This document shows, piece by piece, positions 28,816 to 57,619 of a stretch of DNA of 64,000 nucleotides; the first letter of the stretch is position 1, and every line of letters starts with the position of its first letter. The translations under genes were made by a program, and so were the position numbers. The notes under the pieces were generated by a model. The model saw only the letters and a program-made list of their open reading frames with translations. It ran no database searches and had not been told where the DNA came from. This stretch comes from a virus, in the IMG/VR virus record IMGVR_UViG_3300021375_000017, positions 28,002 through 92,001 of that record. One strand, given 5' to 3'.

Positions 28816-30006
28816 ATGCAGTACGATTTCGTAGCAAGTAAAGAGTATAATAATGATAATAAGACTATTCAGGGAATGACAGTCTTCAATACCGAACAGG
28901 TCAATACCAAGAAACAACCAATGTTTTTTGGTAAACCACTTGGTATTCAAAGATATGATTCGTACAAGTATCCAGTTTTTGAGAAACTAACAACTCAACA
29001 ACTGGGGTATTTCTGGAGACCAGAGGAAGTTTCTCTCCAGAAAGATAGAGCAGACTATCAATTACTTCGTCCAGAACAGAAACATATCTATACTTCTAAC
29101 CTGAAGTACCAGATTATGTTGGACTCTGTTCAGGGTCGTGGCCCTGGTATGGCATTCATTCCTTACTGTTCCTTACCTGAATTGGAAGCTTGTATGGAAG
29201 TCTGGGGATTTATGGAGATGATCCATAGCCGTTCCTACACATACATCATTAAGAATGTGTATCCTGATCCTAGTGATATCTTTGATCATATTATCAATGA
29301 CCCACGTATCCTTGAAAGGGCTTCAAGTGTTACTGAGTCCTATGATGACTTTATTAATAGTGCCCAACAATGGGGTAACGGTAATATGTGGAAAGAAGAT
29401 TTCCGTGACACATATGCATCCAAAGAAGATATCAAAAATGTCAAAAGAAAACTCTATAGAGCAGTTGCAAACGTAAATATTCTTGAGGGTATCAGGTTCT
29501 ACGTTAGTTTTGCTTGTTCTTTCGCCTTTGGTGAACTTAAACTCATGGAAGGATCTTCCAAAATCATTTCACTAATTGCAAGAGATGAGAACCAACACCT
29601 AGCCATTACTCAGAATATCCTGAACAAGTGGAAAGATGGTGATGATCCTGAGATGAAACAGATTGCCAAGGAAGAAGAAGAGTGGGTCTACGCAATGTTT
29701 GACCGTGCAGTAAACGAAGAGAAGAAGTGGGCAGACTATCTGTTCCGTGATGGATCAATGATTGGTTTGAACGATGTTCTTCTTCAAAGATATGTTGAGT
29801 GGATTGCTAATCGCCGTATGAAGGCTATTGGTTTGAAACCTGTGTATGATGTTGCTGCTAAGAACAATCCTCTTCCCTGGACACAACATTGGATCTCTTC
29901 TAAGGGTCTTCAGGTTGCGCCCCAGCAAACTCAAGTGCAGTCGTATGTGGTTGGTGGAATTAAACAAGATGTCAGTAAAGATACATTTTCTGATTTTAAA
30001 CTTTAA
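28816..30006 (+). CDS. nrdB: ribonucleotide reductase class Ia, small subunit
   Basis: 396 residues. Di-iron ligand regions include LPELEACMEVWGFMEMIHSR (E and ExxH) and ARDENQHLAIT (ExxH-type second pair). The C-terminal tail ends DVSKDTFSDFKL, as needed to dock to NrdA. Thirteen bases downstream of nrdA and uninterrupted. A GIY-YIG endonuclease gene follows immediately. Confidence 0.97.
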   Translation: MQYDFVASKEYNNDNKTIQGMTVFNTEQVNTKKQPMFFGKPLGIQRYDSYKYPVFEKLTTQQLGYFWRPEEVSLQKDRADYQLLRPEQKHIYTSNLKYQIMLDSVQGRGPGMAFIPYCSLPELEACMEVWGFMEMIHSRSYTYIIKNVYPDPSDIFDHIINDPRILERASSVTESYDDFINSAQQWGNGNMWKEDFRDTYASKEDIKNVKRKLYRAVANVNILEGIRFYVSFACSFAFGELKLMEGSSKIISLIARDENQHLAITQNILNKWKDGDDPEMKQIAKEEEEWVYAMFDRAVNEEKKWADYLFRDGSMIGLNDVLLQRYVEWIANRRMKAIGLKPVYDVAAKNNPLPWTQHWISSKGLQVAPQQTQVQSYVVGGIKQDVSKDTFSDFKL

Positions 30007-30011
30007 TTGAC

Positions 30012-30063
30012 TTTAAGACTGAAATGTAGTATTATATAAATATTATTAGAGTTCAGTCTTAAA
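30012..30063 (+). promoter_or_regulatory. perfect 12-bp inverted repeat enclosing a TATAAATA late promoter
   Basis: TTTAAGACTGAA (30012-30023) pairs exactly with TTCAGTCTTAAA (30052-30063); TATAAATA is at 30035-30042 in the loop. The GIY-YIG ATG begins at the next base (30064). Readthrough mRNA would fold the arm against the start codon; late mRNA would lack the 5' arm. Confidence 0.8.
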
Positions 30064-30684
30064 ATGAATAATTATATTCTTTATTATTACTTAAGGGAGG
30101 ACTTCGGTTCCCCCTTTTATGTTGGTTATGGAAAACCGAGAAGAATTAATTCCAGACACTCTAGAAGAAATGGTGCTGAAATTTTACCACATAGAGAGAG
30201 GAGATGGATTGTAAAATCTGGTTTATCTAAAGAAGAAGCAATAGAACTTGAGATAAAACATATAGCACTCTGGAAAAGAGAATGTGATGGTGGTGTATTG
30301 TTAAATCAAAATCTTGGTGGAGAAGGAAAACCTGGAGGACAAAAAACAAAAGGTTTTAGTGGTAGAAAGCACACTGAAGAAGCAAAGAAAAAAATAAGTG
30401 AAAAAGTTGCAGGAAAAAATAATCCAAGTTATGGTGTTCCTTGTAGTAAAGAACGAAAAAGAAAAATAAGTGAAAGAGCAAAAGAAAGATTTGCCGAAGG
30501 ATTTAAATCTCCTTCATCAGTAACTTATCTTTTAACAAGTCATTCTAAAGAAAAATTTAAGGTATTTGGAGAACTTAAAAAGTTTTGTAAGTCTCAAAAT
30601 ATTTCATACGCAACGATGCGCGCAGCAATTCTTTATGATAGAAAAGGTCCTAGAAGAAATGGATGGAGTATTGAGAAAATTTAG
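30064..30684 (+). CDS. GIY-YIG homing endonuclease downstream of nrdB
   Basis: 206 residues. The nuclease motif appears as YYYLREDFGSPFYVGYGKP; the family block EEAIELEIKHIALWKRE and NLGGEGKPGG follow. NUMOD3-like repeats (HTEEAKKKISEKVAG, SKERKRKISERAK) lead to a C-terminal DNA-binding FKVFGELKKFCKSQNI. More diverged from the 8613 and 56873 genes than those are from each other. Inserted between nrdB and a small conserved gene. Confidence 0.88.
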   Translation: MNNYILYYYLREDFGSPFYVGYGKPRRINSRHSRRNGAEILPHRERRWIVKSGLSKEEAIELEIKHIALWKRECDGGVLLNQNLGGEGKPGGQKTKGFSGRKHTEEAKKKISEKVAGKNNPSYGVPCSKERKRKISERAKERFAEGFKSPSSVTYLLTSHSKEKFKVFGELKKFCKSQNISYATMRAAILYDRKGPRRNGWSIEKI

Positions 30685-31072
30685 GATATCATTACCAGAA
30701 GATAAGTGTGTGATAAAACTTCAGGAATATTGTAAGTTTTCTTATACTCTTTTAAAAGTTCCTGTAGTATCTAAGCCTTTATGCGCTGGCGCAAACTGCC
30801 ACAATAATGTAAATCATTATGGGAATACTTATGGTGGAGAAAAAATAAGCGGTTATTATTTAATTACAGATATTGATGATGAAACTTATGGATGTGCTAT
30901 ATACCATAGTATTTGGAAAAATACTTATGGAGACTTAATAGACATAACACCATTTGATGATGGAAGAGAATATAATATGTTTTCTGTGTTGGATGATACC
31001 GATTATTACTCTGGAGTTGTTTATGATGGAAAAGATTATAAATTATTAGAACCCGGACTTAATATTGTTTAA
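30659..31072 (+). CDS. hypothetical protein, 137 aa, with CAGANC and HYGG-type motifs
   Basis: Overlaps the endonuclease end by 26 bases, and its start is uncertain (ATG 30659; GTG 30668 or TTG 30671 also fit). Core: PLCAGANCHNNVNHYG, YGGEKISGYYLI, IYHSIWKNTYGDLIDITP, and a late FSVLDD. The order (C...N V..., GGE...GY, HS.W....G.L.DITP) resembles a family of proteins of unknown function seen in viruses and bacteria. The endonuclease insertion may have replaced its original upstream region. Confidence 0.6.
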   Translation: MDGVLRKFRISLPEDKCVIKLQEYCKFSYTLLKVPVVSKPLCAGANCHNNVNHYGNTYGGEKISGYYLITDIDDETYGCAIYHSIWKNTYGDLIDITPFDDGREYNMFSVLDDTDYYSGVVYDGKDYKLLEPGLNIV

Positions 31073-31073
31073 G

Positions 31074-31627
31074 ATGTCAAAAAAGACACGTTCTCAGGAT
31101 TCCAACTCTAAGGTTAAGGCCAAGAGACAGGATGATTGGTGGTTCCATGAGGAGCCACTAAATACCACAGATACAATGGATATGTGTGTGATTACGAAAA
31201 TCCGTGGTTGTTTCAAGGACAACCTTTTCTATCTGAGGATATTGGTGATTCTTTCGGCTTTGTCTATAGGATTACAAACCTCAAGAATGGTAGAAAATAC
31301 ATCGGGCGAAAGTACTTTTGGTCCAAACGAAAGCCTAGAGCTACAGTTAAGAACAAGTCAAGGCGAAGAGTTACAACTGAAAGTGACTGGAAAAAATACT
31401 ACGGAAGTTGTCCAGAGCTTAAGGACGATCTTACAAAGTATGGAAAGGAATCTTTTAGTAGAGAGATCATCTCACTCCATGTAACACTGGGAAAGGTAAA
31501 CTTTGAGGAGACCCGTCAGTTGTTTCTGAATGAGGTTCTGTCCCAAAAGTTGACAGATGAGACTCCTTTGTATTATAATTCCAACATCCTTGGTCGGTAC
31601 TACCGCAAGGATTATTTTAACAAGTAA
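31074..31627 (+). CDS. GIY-YIG nuclease-domain protein, apparently frameshifted
   Basis: The first frame (from 31074) encodes RQDDWWFHEEPLNTTDTMDM; the second, from the GTG at 31184, encodes CDYENPWLFQG, then FGFVYRITNLKNGRKYIGRKY (GIY-YIG core) and NILGRYYRKDYF. The frames meet at (TG)4 at 31183-31190; removing one TG gives a continuous 183-residue protein, TMDM running into CDYENPW. So this is either a genuine 2-bp slip, a sequencing error or a coupled pair. It lacks NUMOD repeats and looks like a resident gene rather than a homing insert. Confidence 0.65.
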
Positions 31628-32377: not shown

Positions 32378-32450
32378 GCCCCGTTAGCTCAGGAGACAGA
32401 GCACGTTCCTTCTAAGAATGCGGTCGGGGGTGCGAATCCTCCACGGGGCG
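32378..32450 (+). tRNA. tRNA-Arg (anticodon TCT)
   Basis: Acceptor GCCCCGT/ACGGGGC (7 bp). Anticodon stem CGTTC/GAATG with loop CTTCTAA gives TCT (reads AGA/AGG). T-stem GGGGG/CCTCC with one G-T pair and loop TGCGAAT. Length 73, no CCA encoded. AGA codons are frequent in this phage (many R codons in the window are AGA), which fits a codon-supply role. Confidence 0.9.
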
Positions 32451-32454
32451 TCAT

Positions 32455-32527
32455 TGACCTATAGCTCAGTTGGTAGAGCGCGGAACTGTTAATTCTGTTG
32501 TCCTAGGTTCGAGTCCTAGTGGGTCAG
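32455..32527 (+). tRNA. tRNA-Asn (anticodon GTT)
   Basis: Acceptor TGACCTA/TGGGTCA with one T-G pair; D-arm AGCTCAGTTGGTAGAGC; anticodon stem CGGAA/TTCTG with loop CTGTTAA gives GTT; T-arm CTAGG-TTCGAGT-CCTAG. Four bases after tRNA-Arg, so likely one precursor. Confidence 0.92.
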
Positions 32528-34021: not shown

Positions 34022-34270
34022 ATGTTGGTAGTAAGATGCAAACAATGTAACACGGAGATCCATAGCACTAACAAAACACAGTCGTGCGGATGTCCTAACA
34101 TGATGACAGTCATTGGAGAAAAGATTTCTGCAGTTGACTTAAACAAAGTCATCATGTTAAATTCACAGAAGAACACTAAACAAAAAGATGTTCTGTCTTC
34201 TCAAGACTTGATGTATCAAGAGGAGAGAAGAAGCCGAAAGGTAAAAAAACTTGATTTTGAAATTAGGTGA
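34022..34270 (+). CDS. small zinc-ribbon-like protein, 82 aa
   Basis: Two Cys groups near the N-terminus (VVRCKQCNTE, SCGCPN) indicate a compact zinc site; the rest is charged and helical (YQEERRSRKVKKLDF). Such small proteins are frequent in cyanophages. A DNA or protein adaptor role is only a guess. Confidence 0.55.
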   Translation: MLVVRCKQCNTEIHSTNKTQSCGCPNMMTVIGEKISAVDLNKVIMLNSQKNTKQKDVLSSQDLMYQEERRSRKVKKLDFEIR

Positions 34271-35883: not shown

Positions 35884-36140
35884 TTGTGAAGGTGACTACA
35901 AAACCAACTGTTCTTCTGGAACAGTTTCCCTATCGGTATATTCAGGTCGGTGTATTAGAAATCAATGGTAAACCTGATTGTAGAATTCAGAAAGTGGATT
36001 CATATACCGGTCGTTATAAAGACATTTATCTTTGCGACAACGAAATGCAACTGATGACTGCAATGGAAGATTTTGAATACACTCGCTGGCTTGATCCGGA
36101 TGGGGTTCCTTGTTATGTTAGAGACTCGGTAGGTCGTTAA
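35880..36140 (+). CDS. hypothetical protein, 86 aa
   Basis: Starts with TTG overlapping the previous stop (TTGA); a GTG at 35886 is an alternative. A beta-rich protein with FPYRYIQVGVLEINGKP, SYTGRYKDIYLCDNE and EYTRWLDPDGVPCYV. Followed by about 80 bases with no clear gene, then a terminator. Function not recognised. Confidence 0.5.
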   Translation: MIVKVTTKPTVLLEQFPYRYIQVGVLEINGKPDCRIQKVDSYTGRYKDIYLCDNEMQLMTAMEDFEYTRWLDPDGVPCYVRDSVGR

Positions 36141-36220
36141 AGTGTCCTGGTGGAGTCAATAGACCCTTATGGTTTCTTGTTTCCATCTAAAGAACAAGTG
36201 GCGTGCATGAAAGACCTCTG

Positions 36221-54049: not shown

Positions 54050-54213
54050 AGTCGAGAGGTTACGGAATCAACACATTCCTTTACTGTTCGTAACACTCCT
54101 CAAACCGAGACCTATAGGGTGTATAAATCACGTCTCTCATATCCCCGGCTGAGGGTGCTGGGGAAATAGTAACTCCACCATTCCCTGATGGTCTTACTTT
54201 TTTGTTCAAAACA

Positions 54214-56778: not shown

Positions 56779-56798
56779 TAATGGGGCAGCAAAGTCGG

Positions 56799-56862
56799 GT
56801 AGGGGTATTTGGCTTGCGTAAGTCCCCATTTTATTCTATAATATAAATAGTAATACCCCTAC
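56799..56862 (+). promoter_or_regulatory. perfect 11-bp inverted repeat enclosing TATAAATA
   Basis: GTAGGGGTATT (56799-56809) pairs exactly with AATACCCCTAC (56852-56862). TATAAATA lies at 56842-56849. The GIY-YIG start is 10 bases past the 3' arm. Third such device in the window. Confidence 0.78.
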
Positions 56863-56872
56863 TAAAAGAACA

Positions 56873-57619
56873 ATGTATTATACTTACGCATACCTGCGGG
56901 AAGATAAAACTCCTTATTACATTGGAAAAGGCAAAGGCGATAGAATTTATAAAAAAAGCAATAGGGAAATTAAACCACCAAAAGATAGGACAAGAGTAAT
57001 TTTTCTAAAACAAAACCTCACTGAAGAAGAAGCATTTAAACATGAAAAATATATGATTGCCGTGTTTGGTAGGAAAGATTTAGGAAATGGTATTCTTCGC
57101 AACAGGACTGATGGTGGAGAAGGAAATAGTGGGTTGATTCATAGTCAAGAATCAAAAAGAAAAATAAGTGAAGCAGTAAAGGGAAAAAATCATCCTCTAT
57201 ATGGAATATCTCCTTCAAAAGAAACGAGGAAAAAAATGAGTAATTCTTTGAAGGGAAGAATAATCTTTCCAGAATGGAGAGAAAAAATGAGTAAATCTCA
57301 TATTGGAAGACCAGGAACTTATGGATTTGATGGAAAGTTTCATAGTCAAGAAACTAAACAAAAATTGAGACAAATAAATCTTGGTAGAAAACATTCTGAA
57401 GAAACTAGAAGAAAAATAAGTGAATCGCATAAATGCTCAAATCATTATCAATATGGAAAACCTCTTTCAGAAGAAACAAAGAAGAAATTAAAAGAAATAA
57501 ATATTGGAAAAAATAATCCAAATTATGGAAAACACTGGTGGAACAATGGACATATTTCCAAACTTAGTATAGAATGTCCTGGAAATGGTTGGATTCGTGG
57601 TAGAATTGCAAATAGATAG
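56873..57619 (+). CDS. GIY-YIG homing endonuclease, NUMOD3 repeats
   Basis: 248 residues. Nuclease: MYYTYAYLREDKTPYYIGKG, KHEKYMIAVFGRKDLGNGIL, TDGGEGNSG. Six or so NUMOD3-like repeats follow (SKETRKKMSNSLKG, SEETRRKISESHK). C-terminus has KHWWNNGHISKLS. Closest relative in the window is 8613. It sits directly upstream of the gene at 57634, whose ribosome site (AGGAGG) overlaps its stop. Confidence 0.9.
   Translation: MYYTYAYLREDKTPYYIGKGKGDRIYKKSNREIKPPKDRTRVIFLKQNLTEEEAFKHEKYMIAVFGRKDLGNGILRNRTDGGEGNSGLIHSQESKRKISEAVKGKNHPLYGISPSKETRKKMSNSLKGRIIFPEWREKMSKSHIGRPGTYGFDGKFHSQETKQKLRQINLGRKHSEETRRKISESHKCSNHYQYGKPLSEETKKKLKEINIGKNNPNYGKHWWNNGHISKLSIECPGNGWIRGRIANR

What the first reader, a model, noticed from the sequence alone, without database searches (positions are those of the whole stretch)
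30012..30066. Hairpin with embedded late promoter directly in front of a GIY-YIG start codon
A perfect 12-bp inverted repeat (30012-30023/30052-30063) holds TATAAATA in its loop and touches the ATG. An upstream nrdB readthrough transcript would carry the hairpin; a transcript from the internal late promoter starts after the 5' arm and would be free. T4 I-TevI, soc and lysozyme mRNAs use the same logic, so this looks like a conserved early-off/late-on translation switch.
Basis: partly seen in the sequence, partly recalled or inferred. Interest (0 to 1): 0.72.

Follow-up and report, generated by a model that had tools for sequence, protein, structure and literature searches.

The report
Late-only RNA lock on homing endonuclease
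In front of a selfish DNA-cutting gene in a T4-like cyanophage lies a small RNA hairpin with a late promoter in its loop, a layout kept across many related viruses, which probably keeps the gene silent until late in infection.

Summary
It is conserved. All 80 kept relatives of the gene sit behind nrdB; 40 distinct leaders keep the hairpin with covariation (89.4% of cells paired, 0/500 shuffles) and 38/40 keep TATAAATA. The T4-type early-off/late-on reading is therefore well supported by comparison, though no expression data exist and no Shine-Dalgarno is seen.

Two larger findings. (1) The gene is a homing cassette: relatives with an empty site show a 1,104-bp insert in the nrdB/small-ORF overlap. 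The overlap is duplicated, so both genes stay intact, and the last ~90 nt of nrdB resemble occupied sites, not the 99%-identical empty relative. (2) Inverted repeats bracketing late promoters mark homing endonucleases generally: 68/100 NUMOD3-type starts have arms of 11 bp or more, versus 2/216 other starts (one mis-sorted). A second architecture (MA01, S-CREM2 and others) adds a terminator between the arms, usually a second late promoter, and looks like a ~50-nt RNA whose loop is antisense to the endonuclease mRNA's 5' end.

The parts
29913..30006 (+). 3' end of nrdB, apparently donor-derived (co-converted): codes for the normal C-terminus but DNA diverged from the otherwise 99% identical empty relative
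   Evidence: preceding 210 nt 99% identical to L132 (empty), last 90 nt 70%; best tail matches are occupied loci (89%)
29967..29975 (+). AAGATGTCA, left copy of the 9-nt repeat that bounds the insert
30007..30035 (+). sigma-70-like TTGACT-17-TATTAT overlapping the 5' arm (possible early promoter; not conserved in all relatives)
   Evidence: 26 of 40 leaders
30012..30023 (+). 5' arm of the hairpin
30035..30042 (+). TATAAATA late-promoter octamer in the loop; predicted start of late RNA about 30048
   Evidence: 38 of 40 leaders; motif from PMC2984593
30052..30063 (+). 3' arm of the hairpin, touching the start codon
30064..30684 (+). GIY-YIG homing endonuclease with NUMOD3 motif (206 aa)
30659..31072 (+). 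second ORF of the cassette (137 aa, conserved, C/H-rich, function unknown); its start overlaps the endonuclease gene
   Evidence: no Pfam/NCBIfam/PDB match (the Pfam scan covered residues 5-137)
31071..31079 (+). AAGATGTCA, right copy of the 9-nt repeat; right end of the 1,104-bp insert
31073..31111 (+). displaced original nrdB 3' end (DVKKDTFSGFQL*), which is also the start of the overlapping downstream small ORF (ATG 31074, MSKKTRSQDSN...)
56783..56835 (+). terminator-like hairpin before the second homing endonuclease; its loop carries the 5' arm GTAGGGGTATT (56799-56809)
56842..56849 (+). TATAAATA late octamer of the second endonuclease, between the arms
56852..56862 (+). 3' arm AATACCCCTAC, complementary to 56799-56809
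56873..57619 (+). second NUMOD3 homing endonuclease (248 aa)

Best explanation
30012-30063 is a cis-acting timing lock on a homing endonuclease gene. Transcripts that run in from nrdB carry both arms and form a hairpin ending at the AUG, which hinders 30S loading. After the switch to gp55-type late transcription, RNA starts at about 30048 inside the loop, lacks the 5' arm, and presents an open 16-nt leader, so the endonuclease is made late. The lock travels with a 1.1-kb homing cassette inserted at an nrdB target site lying in the overlap of nrdB with a small downstream ORF. The cassette brings a replacement nrdB end, so nrdB remains complete and probably immune to recutting. Shown by sequence: hairpin, covariation, octamer, junctions, chimeric nrdB. 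Inferred: late start site, translational effect, cleavage of the empty allele.
For: Geometry exact. 80 of 80 kept relatives of the gene (116 found) sit behind an nrdB end. 40 distinct leaders: 17-pair helix 89.4% paired, 9 pairs with double changes, 0/500 shuffles reach the covariation score, sliding the partner destroys it; TATAAATA in 38/40. Exact hairpin in 46 contigs. Openness 0.25 to 0.55; over 91 endonuclease starts the medians are 0.27 to 0.58, versus 0.47 to 0.54 for 205 other starts. Empty sites L132/L134 define the junctions. Chimeric nrdB. Endonuclease and nrdB identities uncorrelated (r = 0.12, 52 loci; e.g. L047/L030 nrdB 71%, endonuclease 97%). Same logic published for T4 and Aeh1.
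Against: No RNA or protein data. No Shine-Dalgarno at the T4-like position. The AUG itself is mostly unpaired in the model; the arm ends one base before it. A sigma-70-like promoter in 26/40 leaders could give early hairpin-free RNA. In the nrdB family one-sided changes are not clearly G.U rather than A.C, so that family alone does not separate an RNA hairpin from a DNA palindrome. Many loci are close relatives, so counts are not independent.
Confidence: 0.72

Rival explanations
1. DNA-level operator: the palindrome is a binding site by which the endonuclease (or another protein) represses its own late promoter, as I-TevI does.
For: Stem sequence in the nrdB family is strongly conserved, not only its pairing; I-TevI autorepression is documented (PMC2988022 passage); one-sided changes in this family do not favour G.U.
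Against: In other endonuclease families the spacing between arms ranges from about 39 to 61 nt and stems have unrelated sequences; there the non-Watson-Crick pairs are 8 G.U and 0 A.C among 22 distinct arm pairs, which favours pairing of the + strand RNA.
Confidence: 0.12
2. Overlapping early/late promoter: the region is simply a tandem host-type and late promoter, and the repeat is incidental.
For: TTGACT-17-TATTAT at 30007-30035, in 26/40 leaders; overlapping early and late promoters are reported for S-PM2 and RB49 (PMC2984593).
Against: 14 of 40 leaders lack the -35/-10 while keeping hairpin and octamer; of 216 other starts with a late octamer only 2 have such a repeat, one a mis-sorted endonuclease and one low-complexity.
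Confidence: 0.08
3. The hairpin protects or processes the nrdB 3' end.
For: It lies 6 nt after the nrdB stop.
Against: None of 80 empty nrdB relatives has it; it belongs to the cassette; no U-run follows; analogous repeats precede endonucleases that are not behind nrdB.
Confidence: 0.05
4. Chance repeat in A+T-rich DNA.
For: 0.4 repeats of this size are expected per window.
Against: Conservation and covariation in 40 distinct leaders.
Confidence: 0.02

Closest known systems
T4 I-TevI / I-TevII / I-TevIII leader hairpins with internal late promoter
   Same: Early/middle read-through RNA carries a hairpin over the initiation region; a late promoter starts RNA after the 5' arm (PMC2988022 section 12, PMC3014915 passages)
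   Different: Those genes are inside group I introns and hide a consensus Shine-Dalgarno about 8 nt upstream; here there is no intron and no such Shine-Dalgarno
T4 segB and Aeromonas phage Aeh1 mobE (free-standing endonucleases with leader hairpins)
   Same: Free-standing homing endonuclease, leader hairpin, late promoter; mobE also sits among nrd genes
   Different: Here the cassette interrupts the nrdB 3' end and supplies a replacement; Aeh1 mobE splits nrdA into two genes (PMC3653736 passage)
CfrI antisense RNA linking psbA and F-CphI in cyanophage S-PM2
   Same: A cyanophage RNA tied to a homing endonuclease (PMC12197685 passage)
   Different: CfrI is a ~225-nt antisense RNA; the RNAs inferred here for the second architecture are ~50 nt, co-directional, and complementary only to the mRNA 5' end

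Membership tests
T4-type hairpin-locked late homing endonuclease gene | Inverted repeat over the translation initiation region, stable as RNA | tested here: met
T4-type hairpin-locked late homing endonuclease gene | Late-promoter octamer placed so that late RNA lacks the 5' arm | tested here: met
   sequence only:
T4-type hairpin-locked late homing endonuclease gene | Upstream early/middle gene on the same strand without an intervening terminator | tested here: met
   nrdB ends 6 nt before the arm; no terminator-like site between; its timing was not tested
T4-type hairpin-locked late homing endonuclease gene | Shine-Dalgarno about 8 nt upstream, sequestered by the hairpin | tested here: not met
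   leader TTCAGTCTTAAA-ATG has none; the wider definition 'Shine-Dalgarno and/or AUG' (PMC3014915) is partly met
T4-type hairpin-locked late homing endonuclease gene | Reduced translation of long transcripts | not testable with these tools
   only predicted openness
Free-standing GIY-YIG homing endonuclease (Seg-like) | GIY-YIG domain and DNA-binding motifs | tested here: met
   NUMOD3 8.7e-12, PHROG homing endonuclease 5e-13, invariant Y/YVG/R/E/N residues (roles recalled); the Pfam GIY-YIG model itself did not hit and the fold search was weak
Free-standing GIY-YIG homing endonuclease (Seg-like) | Mobility: occupied and empty alleles, co-conversion | tested here: met
Free-standing GIY-YIG homing endonuclease (Seg-like) | Cleavage of the empty allele | not testable with these tools
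   none
Group I intron with endonuclease | Intron RNA structure and interrupted exon | tested here: not met
   no Rfam intron match; complete nrdB with stop upstream

The most novel reading that the evidence does not exclude
Late-promoter-in-inverted-repeat locks are a near-general accessory of mobile endonucleases in T4-like cyanophages, with stems replaced freely by compensatory change. Besides the compact hairpin of this finding there is a second, undescribed architecture: a first late promoter makes a ~50-nt terminated RNA whose 5' hairpin loop is antisense to the first ~11 nt of the endonuclease mRNA made from a second late promoter just downstream, so each endonuclease carries its own co-directional small-RNA regulator. 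The nrdB cassette adds a further trick: it inserts into the overlap of two genes and duplicates the overlap so that both survive.
Probability: 0.5. Interest if true: 0.8.

Novelty: new variant of a known kind. Interest (0 to 1): 0.64.

Why it matters
T4 taught that selfish endonucleases are held back until late infection by leader hairpins, from a handful of enterobacterial and Aeromonas examples. Here the layout recurs across many cyanophage endonuclease families with unrelated stem sequences, which argues for repeated selection on timing. It can be tested in cultured marine phages (MA01, S-CREM2, B23, S-B68). The nrdB cassette shows how a homing gene can enter an essential coding overlap without breaking either gene. 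The putative small RNAs would be a new way of restraining a selfish gene.

Tried and rejected
Group I intron: no Rfam match at gathering or relaxed thresholds in the region. Known RNA family for the second architecture: none in six loci. DNA-palindrome versus RNA test: uninformative in the nrdB family, favours RNA in the second architecture. An early permissive test of the local P1 stem (G.U allowed, flexible position) was worthless, since 98% of shuffles passed; a stricter fixed-offset test was used instead (34 of 38 versus 24% of shuffles). Nested RNA folding does not predict the lock for the window's second endonuclease: openness 0.71 with or without the 5' arm, because the 5' arm sits in the loop of another hairpin. 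Structure models: cargo protein pLDDT 33, useless; endonuclease pLDDT 61 with no significant PDB match. In one search my nrdB-stop finder misplaced the stop in some loci; the tail comparison was redone correctly, and the body identities came from MAFFT alignments. Loci L085-L126 were fetched by the hairpin pattern itself and were left out of the counts. In one search two of the 216 'other' starts had arms of 11 bp or more: L276 is an alternative start of an endonuclease and L027 is low-complexity. RN05-S (L215), one of five named relatives examined, has no such repeat. The accessibility sample excluded other genes with arms of 10 bp or more and starts less than 20 nt after the octamer. The one search count of 33 distinct arms includes variants of one stem.

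Full report
OBSERVATION. The inverted repeat, the octamer and their contact with the ATG are as described. The window is from a T4-like cyanophage: nrdA, nrdB and the following genes match Kyanoviridae, and the record is 92,001 bases long. By chance about 0.4 perfect repeats of 12 bp or more with short spacers are expected per window and 2 are seen. The repeat alone is therefore not decisive. Its placement is: of 20 NATAAATA sites in the window only the two in front of endonuclease genes are bracketed by arms of 11 bp or more.

CONSERVATION. A scan of viral contigs with the endonuclease found 116 relatives, of which 80 were kept. All 80 have an nrdB C-terminus just upstream and the same leader layout. 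Of 40 distinct leaders, 38 hold TATAAATA exactly; the two exceptions differ by one base. The 17-pair helix is 89.4% paired; 9 pairs show changes on both sides; 0 of 500 shuffles reach the covariation score; sliding the partner by one column drops pairing to about 50%. Relatedness inflates such counts, but several lineages carry independent compensations (L011, L063, L071). A sigma-70-like promoter overlaps the 5' arm in 26 of 40 leaders, while the hairpin and octamer persist without it in the others. The octamer, not the sigma-70 box, is thus the constant part. The late motif NATAAATA in cyanomyoviruses and the overlapping early/late promoters of S-PM2 are from PMC2984593 (passages).

MECHANISM. 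In the window the predicted openness of -18..+3 is 0.25 in the long RNA and 0.55 in an RNA starting at 30048. Over 91 endonuclease starts the medians are 0.27 and 0.58; over 205 other starts 0.47 and 0.54; over 35 starts of the resident SegE-like gene 0.38 and 0.46. The T4 logic is documented for e, soc, 49, I-TevI, I-TevII, I-TevIII, segB and Aeh1 mobE (PMC3014915 passages; PMC2988022 passages and sections 9 and 12). The difference here is the lack of a Shine-Dalgarno near -8: the arm fills -12 to -1 and would block the initiation region as such.

THE CASSETTE. A second nrdB C-terminus (DVKKDTFSGFQL*) lies at 31073-31111. Two relatives without the insert, L132 and L134, match the right flank from 31071 onward and match nrdB up to about 29912, with 9 nt (AAGATGTCA) at both ends of a 1,104-bp insert. 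The 210 nt of nrdB before the junction are 99% identical to L132, but the last 90 nt are only 70% identical to it and closest to occupied loci (L015, L006; 89%). This is the expected footprint of homing with one-sided co-conversion. Across 52 loci endonuclease and nrdB identity hardly correlate (r = 0.12), with pairs such as L047/L030 at 71% in nrdB and 97% in the endonuclease. None of the 80 closest nrdB relatives has the hairpin in the 90 nt printed after the stop. In named phages the best protein matches are below 60% identity in 50 of 50 records.

THE OVERLAP. In 78 of 80 empty nrdB genes an ATG lies inside the codons G-ATG-T of the C-terminus, and in 55 of 80 it opens an ORF of 25 codons or more, for example MLPKILSQDSNYDEWCE... 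of about 50 aa. The same ORF starts at the right copy in many occupied loci, directly after the stop of the cassette's second ORF. In L011, L028, L042 and L060 the right copy has lost the nrdB reading but keeps the small ORF. The insert thus separates two overlapping genes by duplicating the overlap. A strict pattern finds the second tail in 39 of 80 loci (one, L068, with an internal stop); 37 of these are 1,001-1,009 nt after the ATG. Some loci have lost it. I recall a comparable C-terminus replacement by mobile ORFs in fungal mitochondria; I did not read it here, and my searches listed nothing of the kind in phages.

A GENERAL RULE. The window's second endonuclease (56873-57619) has an unrelated repeat, GTAGGGGTATT/AATACCCCTAC, bracketing its late octamer. 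Of five named marine relatives examined, MA01, S-CREM2, B23 and S-B68 show long repeats bracketing a late or late-like octamer, RN05-S none. In all fetched loci, excluding those found by the hairpin pattern, 68 of 100 NUMOD3-type endonuclease starts have arms of 11 bp or more (82 of 100 at 9 bp or more), against 2 of 216 other starts, one of them mis-sorted. Seven of 47 other GIY-YIG-like starts have such arms, and all seven match endonuclease families; most of the remaining 40 are the resident SegE-like gene. These loci were gathered by similarity to two endonucleases, so families are over-represented.

SECOND ARCHITECTURE. In 42 leaders the arms are about 39-61 nt apart. Between them 34 of 42 have a terminator-like hairpin, and 38 of 42 have a second late-like octamer upstream of the 5' arm, against 0.012 expected. 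In most of these a local stem starts about 4 nt after that octamer and carries the 5' arm in its loop (34 of 38 versus 24% of shuffles). The 3' arm usually starts 4 nt after the second octamer, i.e. at the likely mRNA 5' end. Among 22 distinct arm pairs there are 253 Watson-Crick, 8 G.U, 0 A.C and 1 other, as expected for pairing of + strand RNA. L137 has a perfect TTGACA-17-TATAAT and a U-run terminator around its 5' arm. The simplest reading is a terminated ~50-nt RNA antisense to the endonuclease leader, but no RNA has been seen. The window's second endonuclease lacks the upstream late octamer, and nested folding does not predict a lock there. Rfam has no match in six such loci; searches for cyanophage small RNAs with endonucleases listed no such system, the nearest being CfrI (PMC12197685 passage).

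VERDICT. It is a T4-like device in a new setting, part of a homing cassette of unusual construction and of a much wider class.

Noticed in passing
window 56783-57619: A second NUMOD3 endonuclease has an unrelated inverted repeat around its late promoter, with the 5' arm in the loop of a terminator-like hairpin that contains GCGTAAGTCCCC, a motif shared (with small changes) with L137, L225, L257, L268 and L282.
   Followed up: partly
L137 2850-2970: Perfect sigma-70 promoter and U-run terminator flanking a ~50-nt stretch whose loop is complementary to the leader of the next gene, directly behind nrdB: a candidate early small RNA.
   Followed up: partly
window 30659-31072: Conserved C/H-rich second ORF of the cassette, no known family, found between the endonuclease and the duplicated overlap in the longer form of the element.
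   Followed up: partly
window 30095-30120: UUCG-loop, terminator-like hairpin with a T-rich tail inside the 5' coding part of the endonuclease gene.
   Followed up: no
window 34096-34159: Another perfect 12-bp inverted repeat (TAACATGATGAC) with a 40-nt spacer, not linked to a late octamer.
   Followed up: no
window 31184-31627: Resident SegE-like GIY-YIG gene, labelled NAD synthetase in PHROG 447 and several phage records; relatives with a late promoter lack long inverted repeats, whereas a NUMOD3-bearing copy (L042, minus strand) has one.
   Followed up: partly
window 54081-54177 and 36119-36212: PhotoRC-II and wcaG RNA motifs (Rfam), plus two tRNAs at 32378-32527.
   Followed up: no
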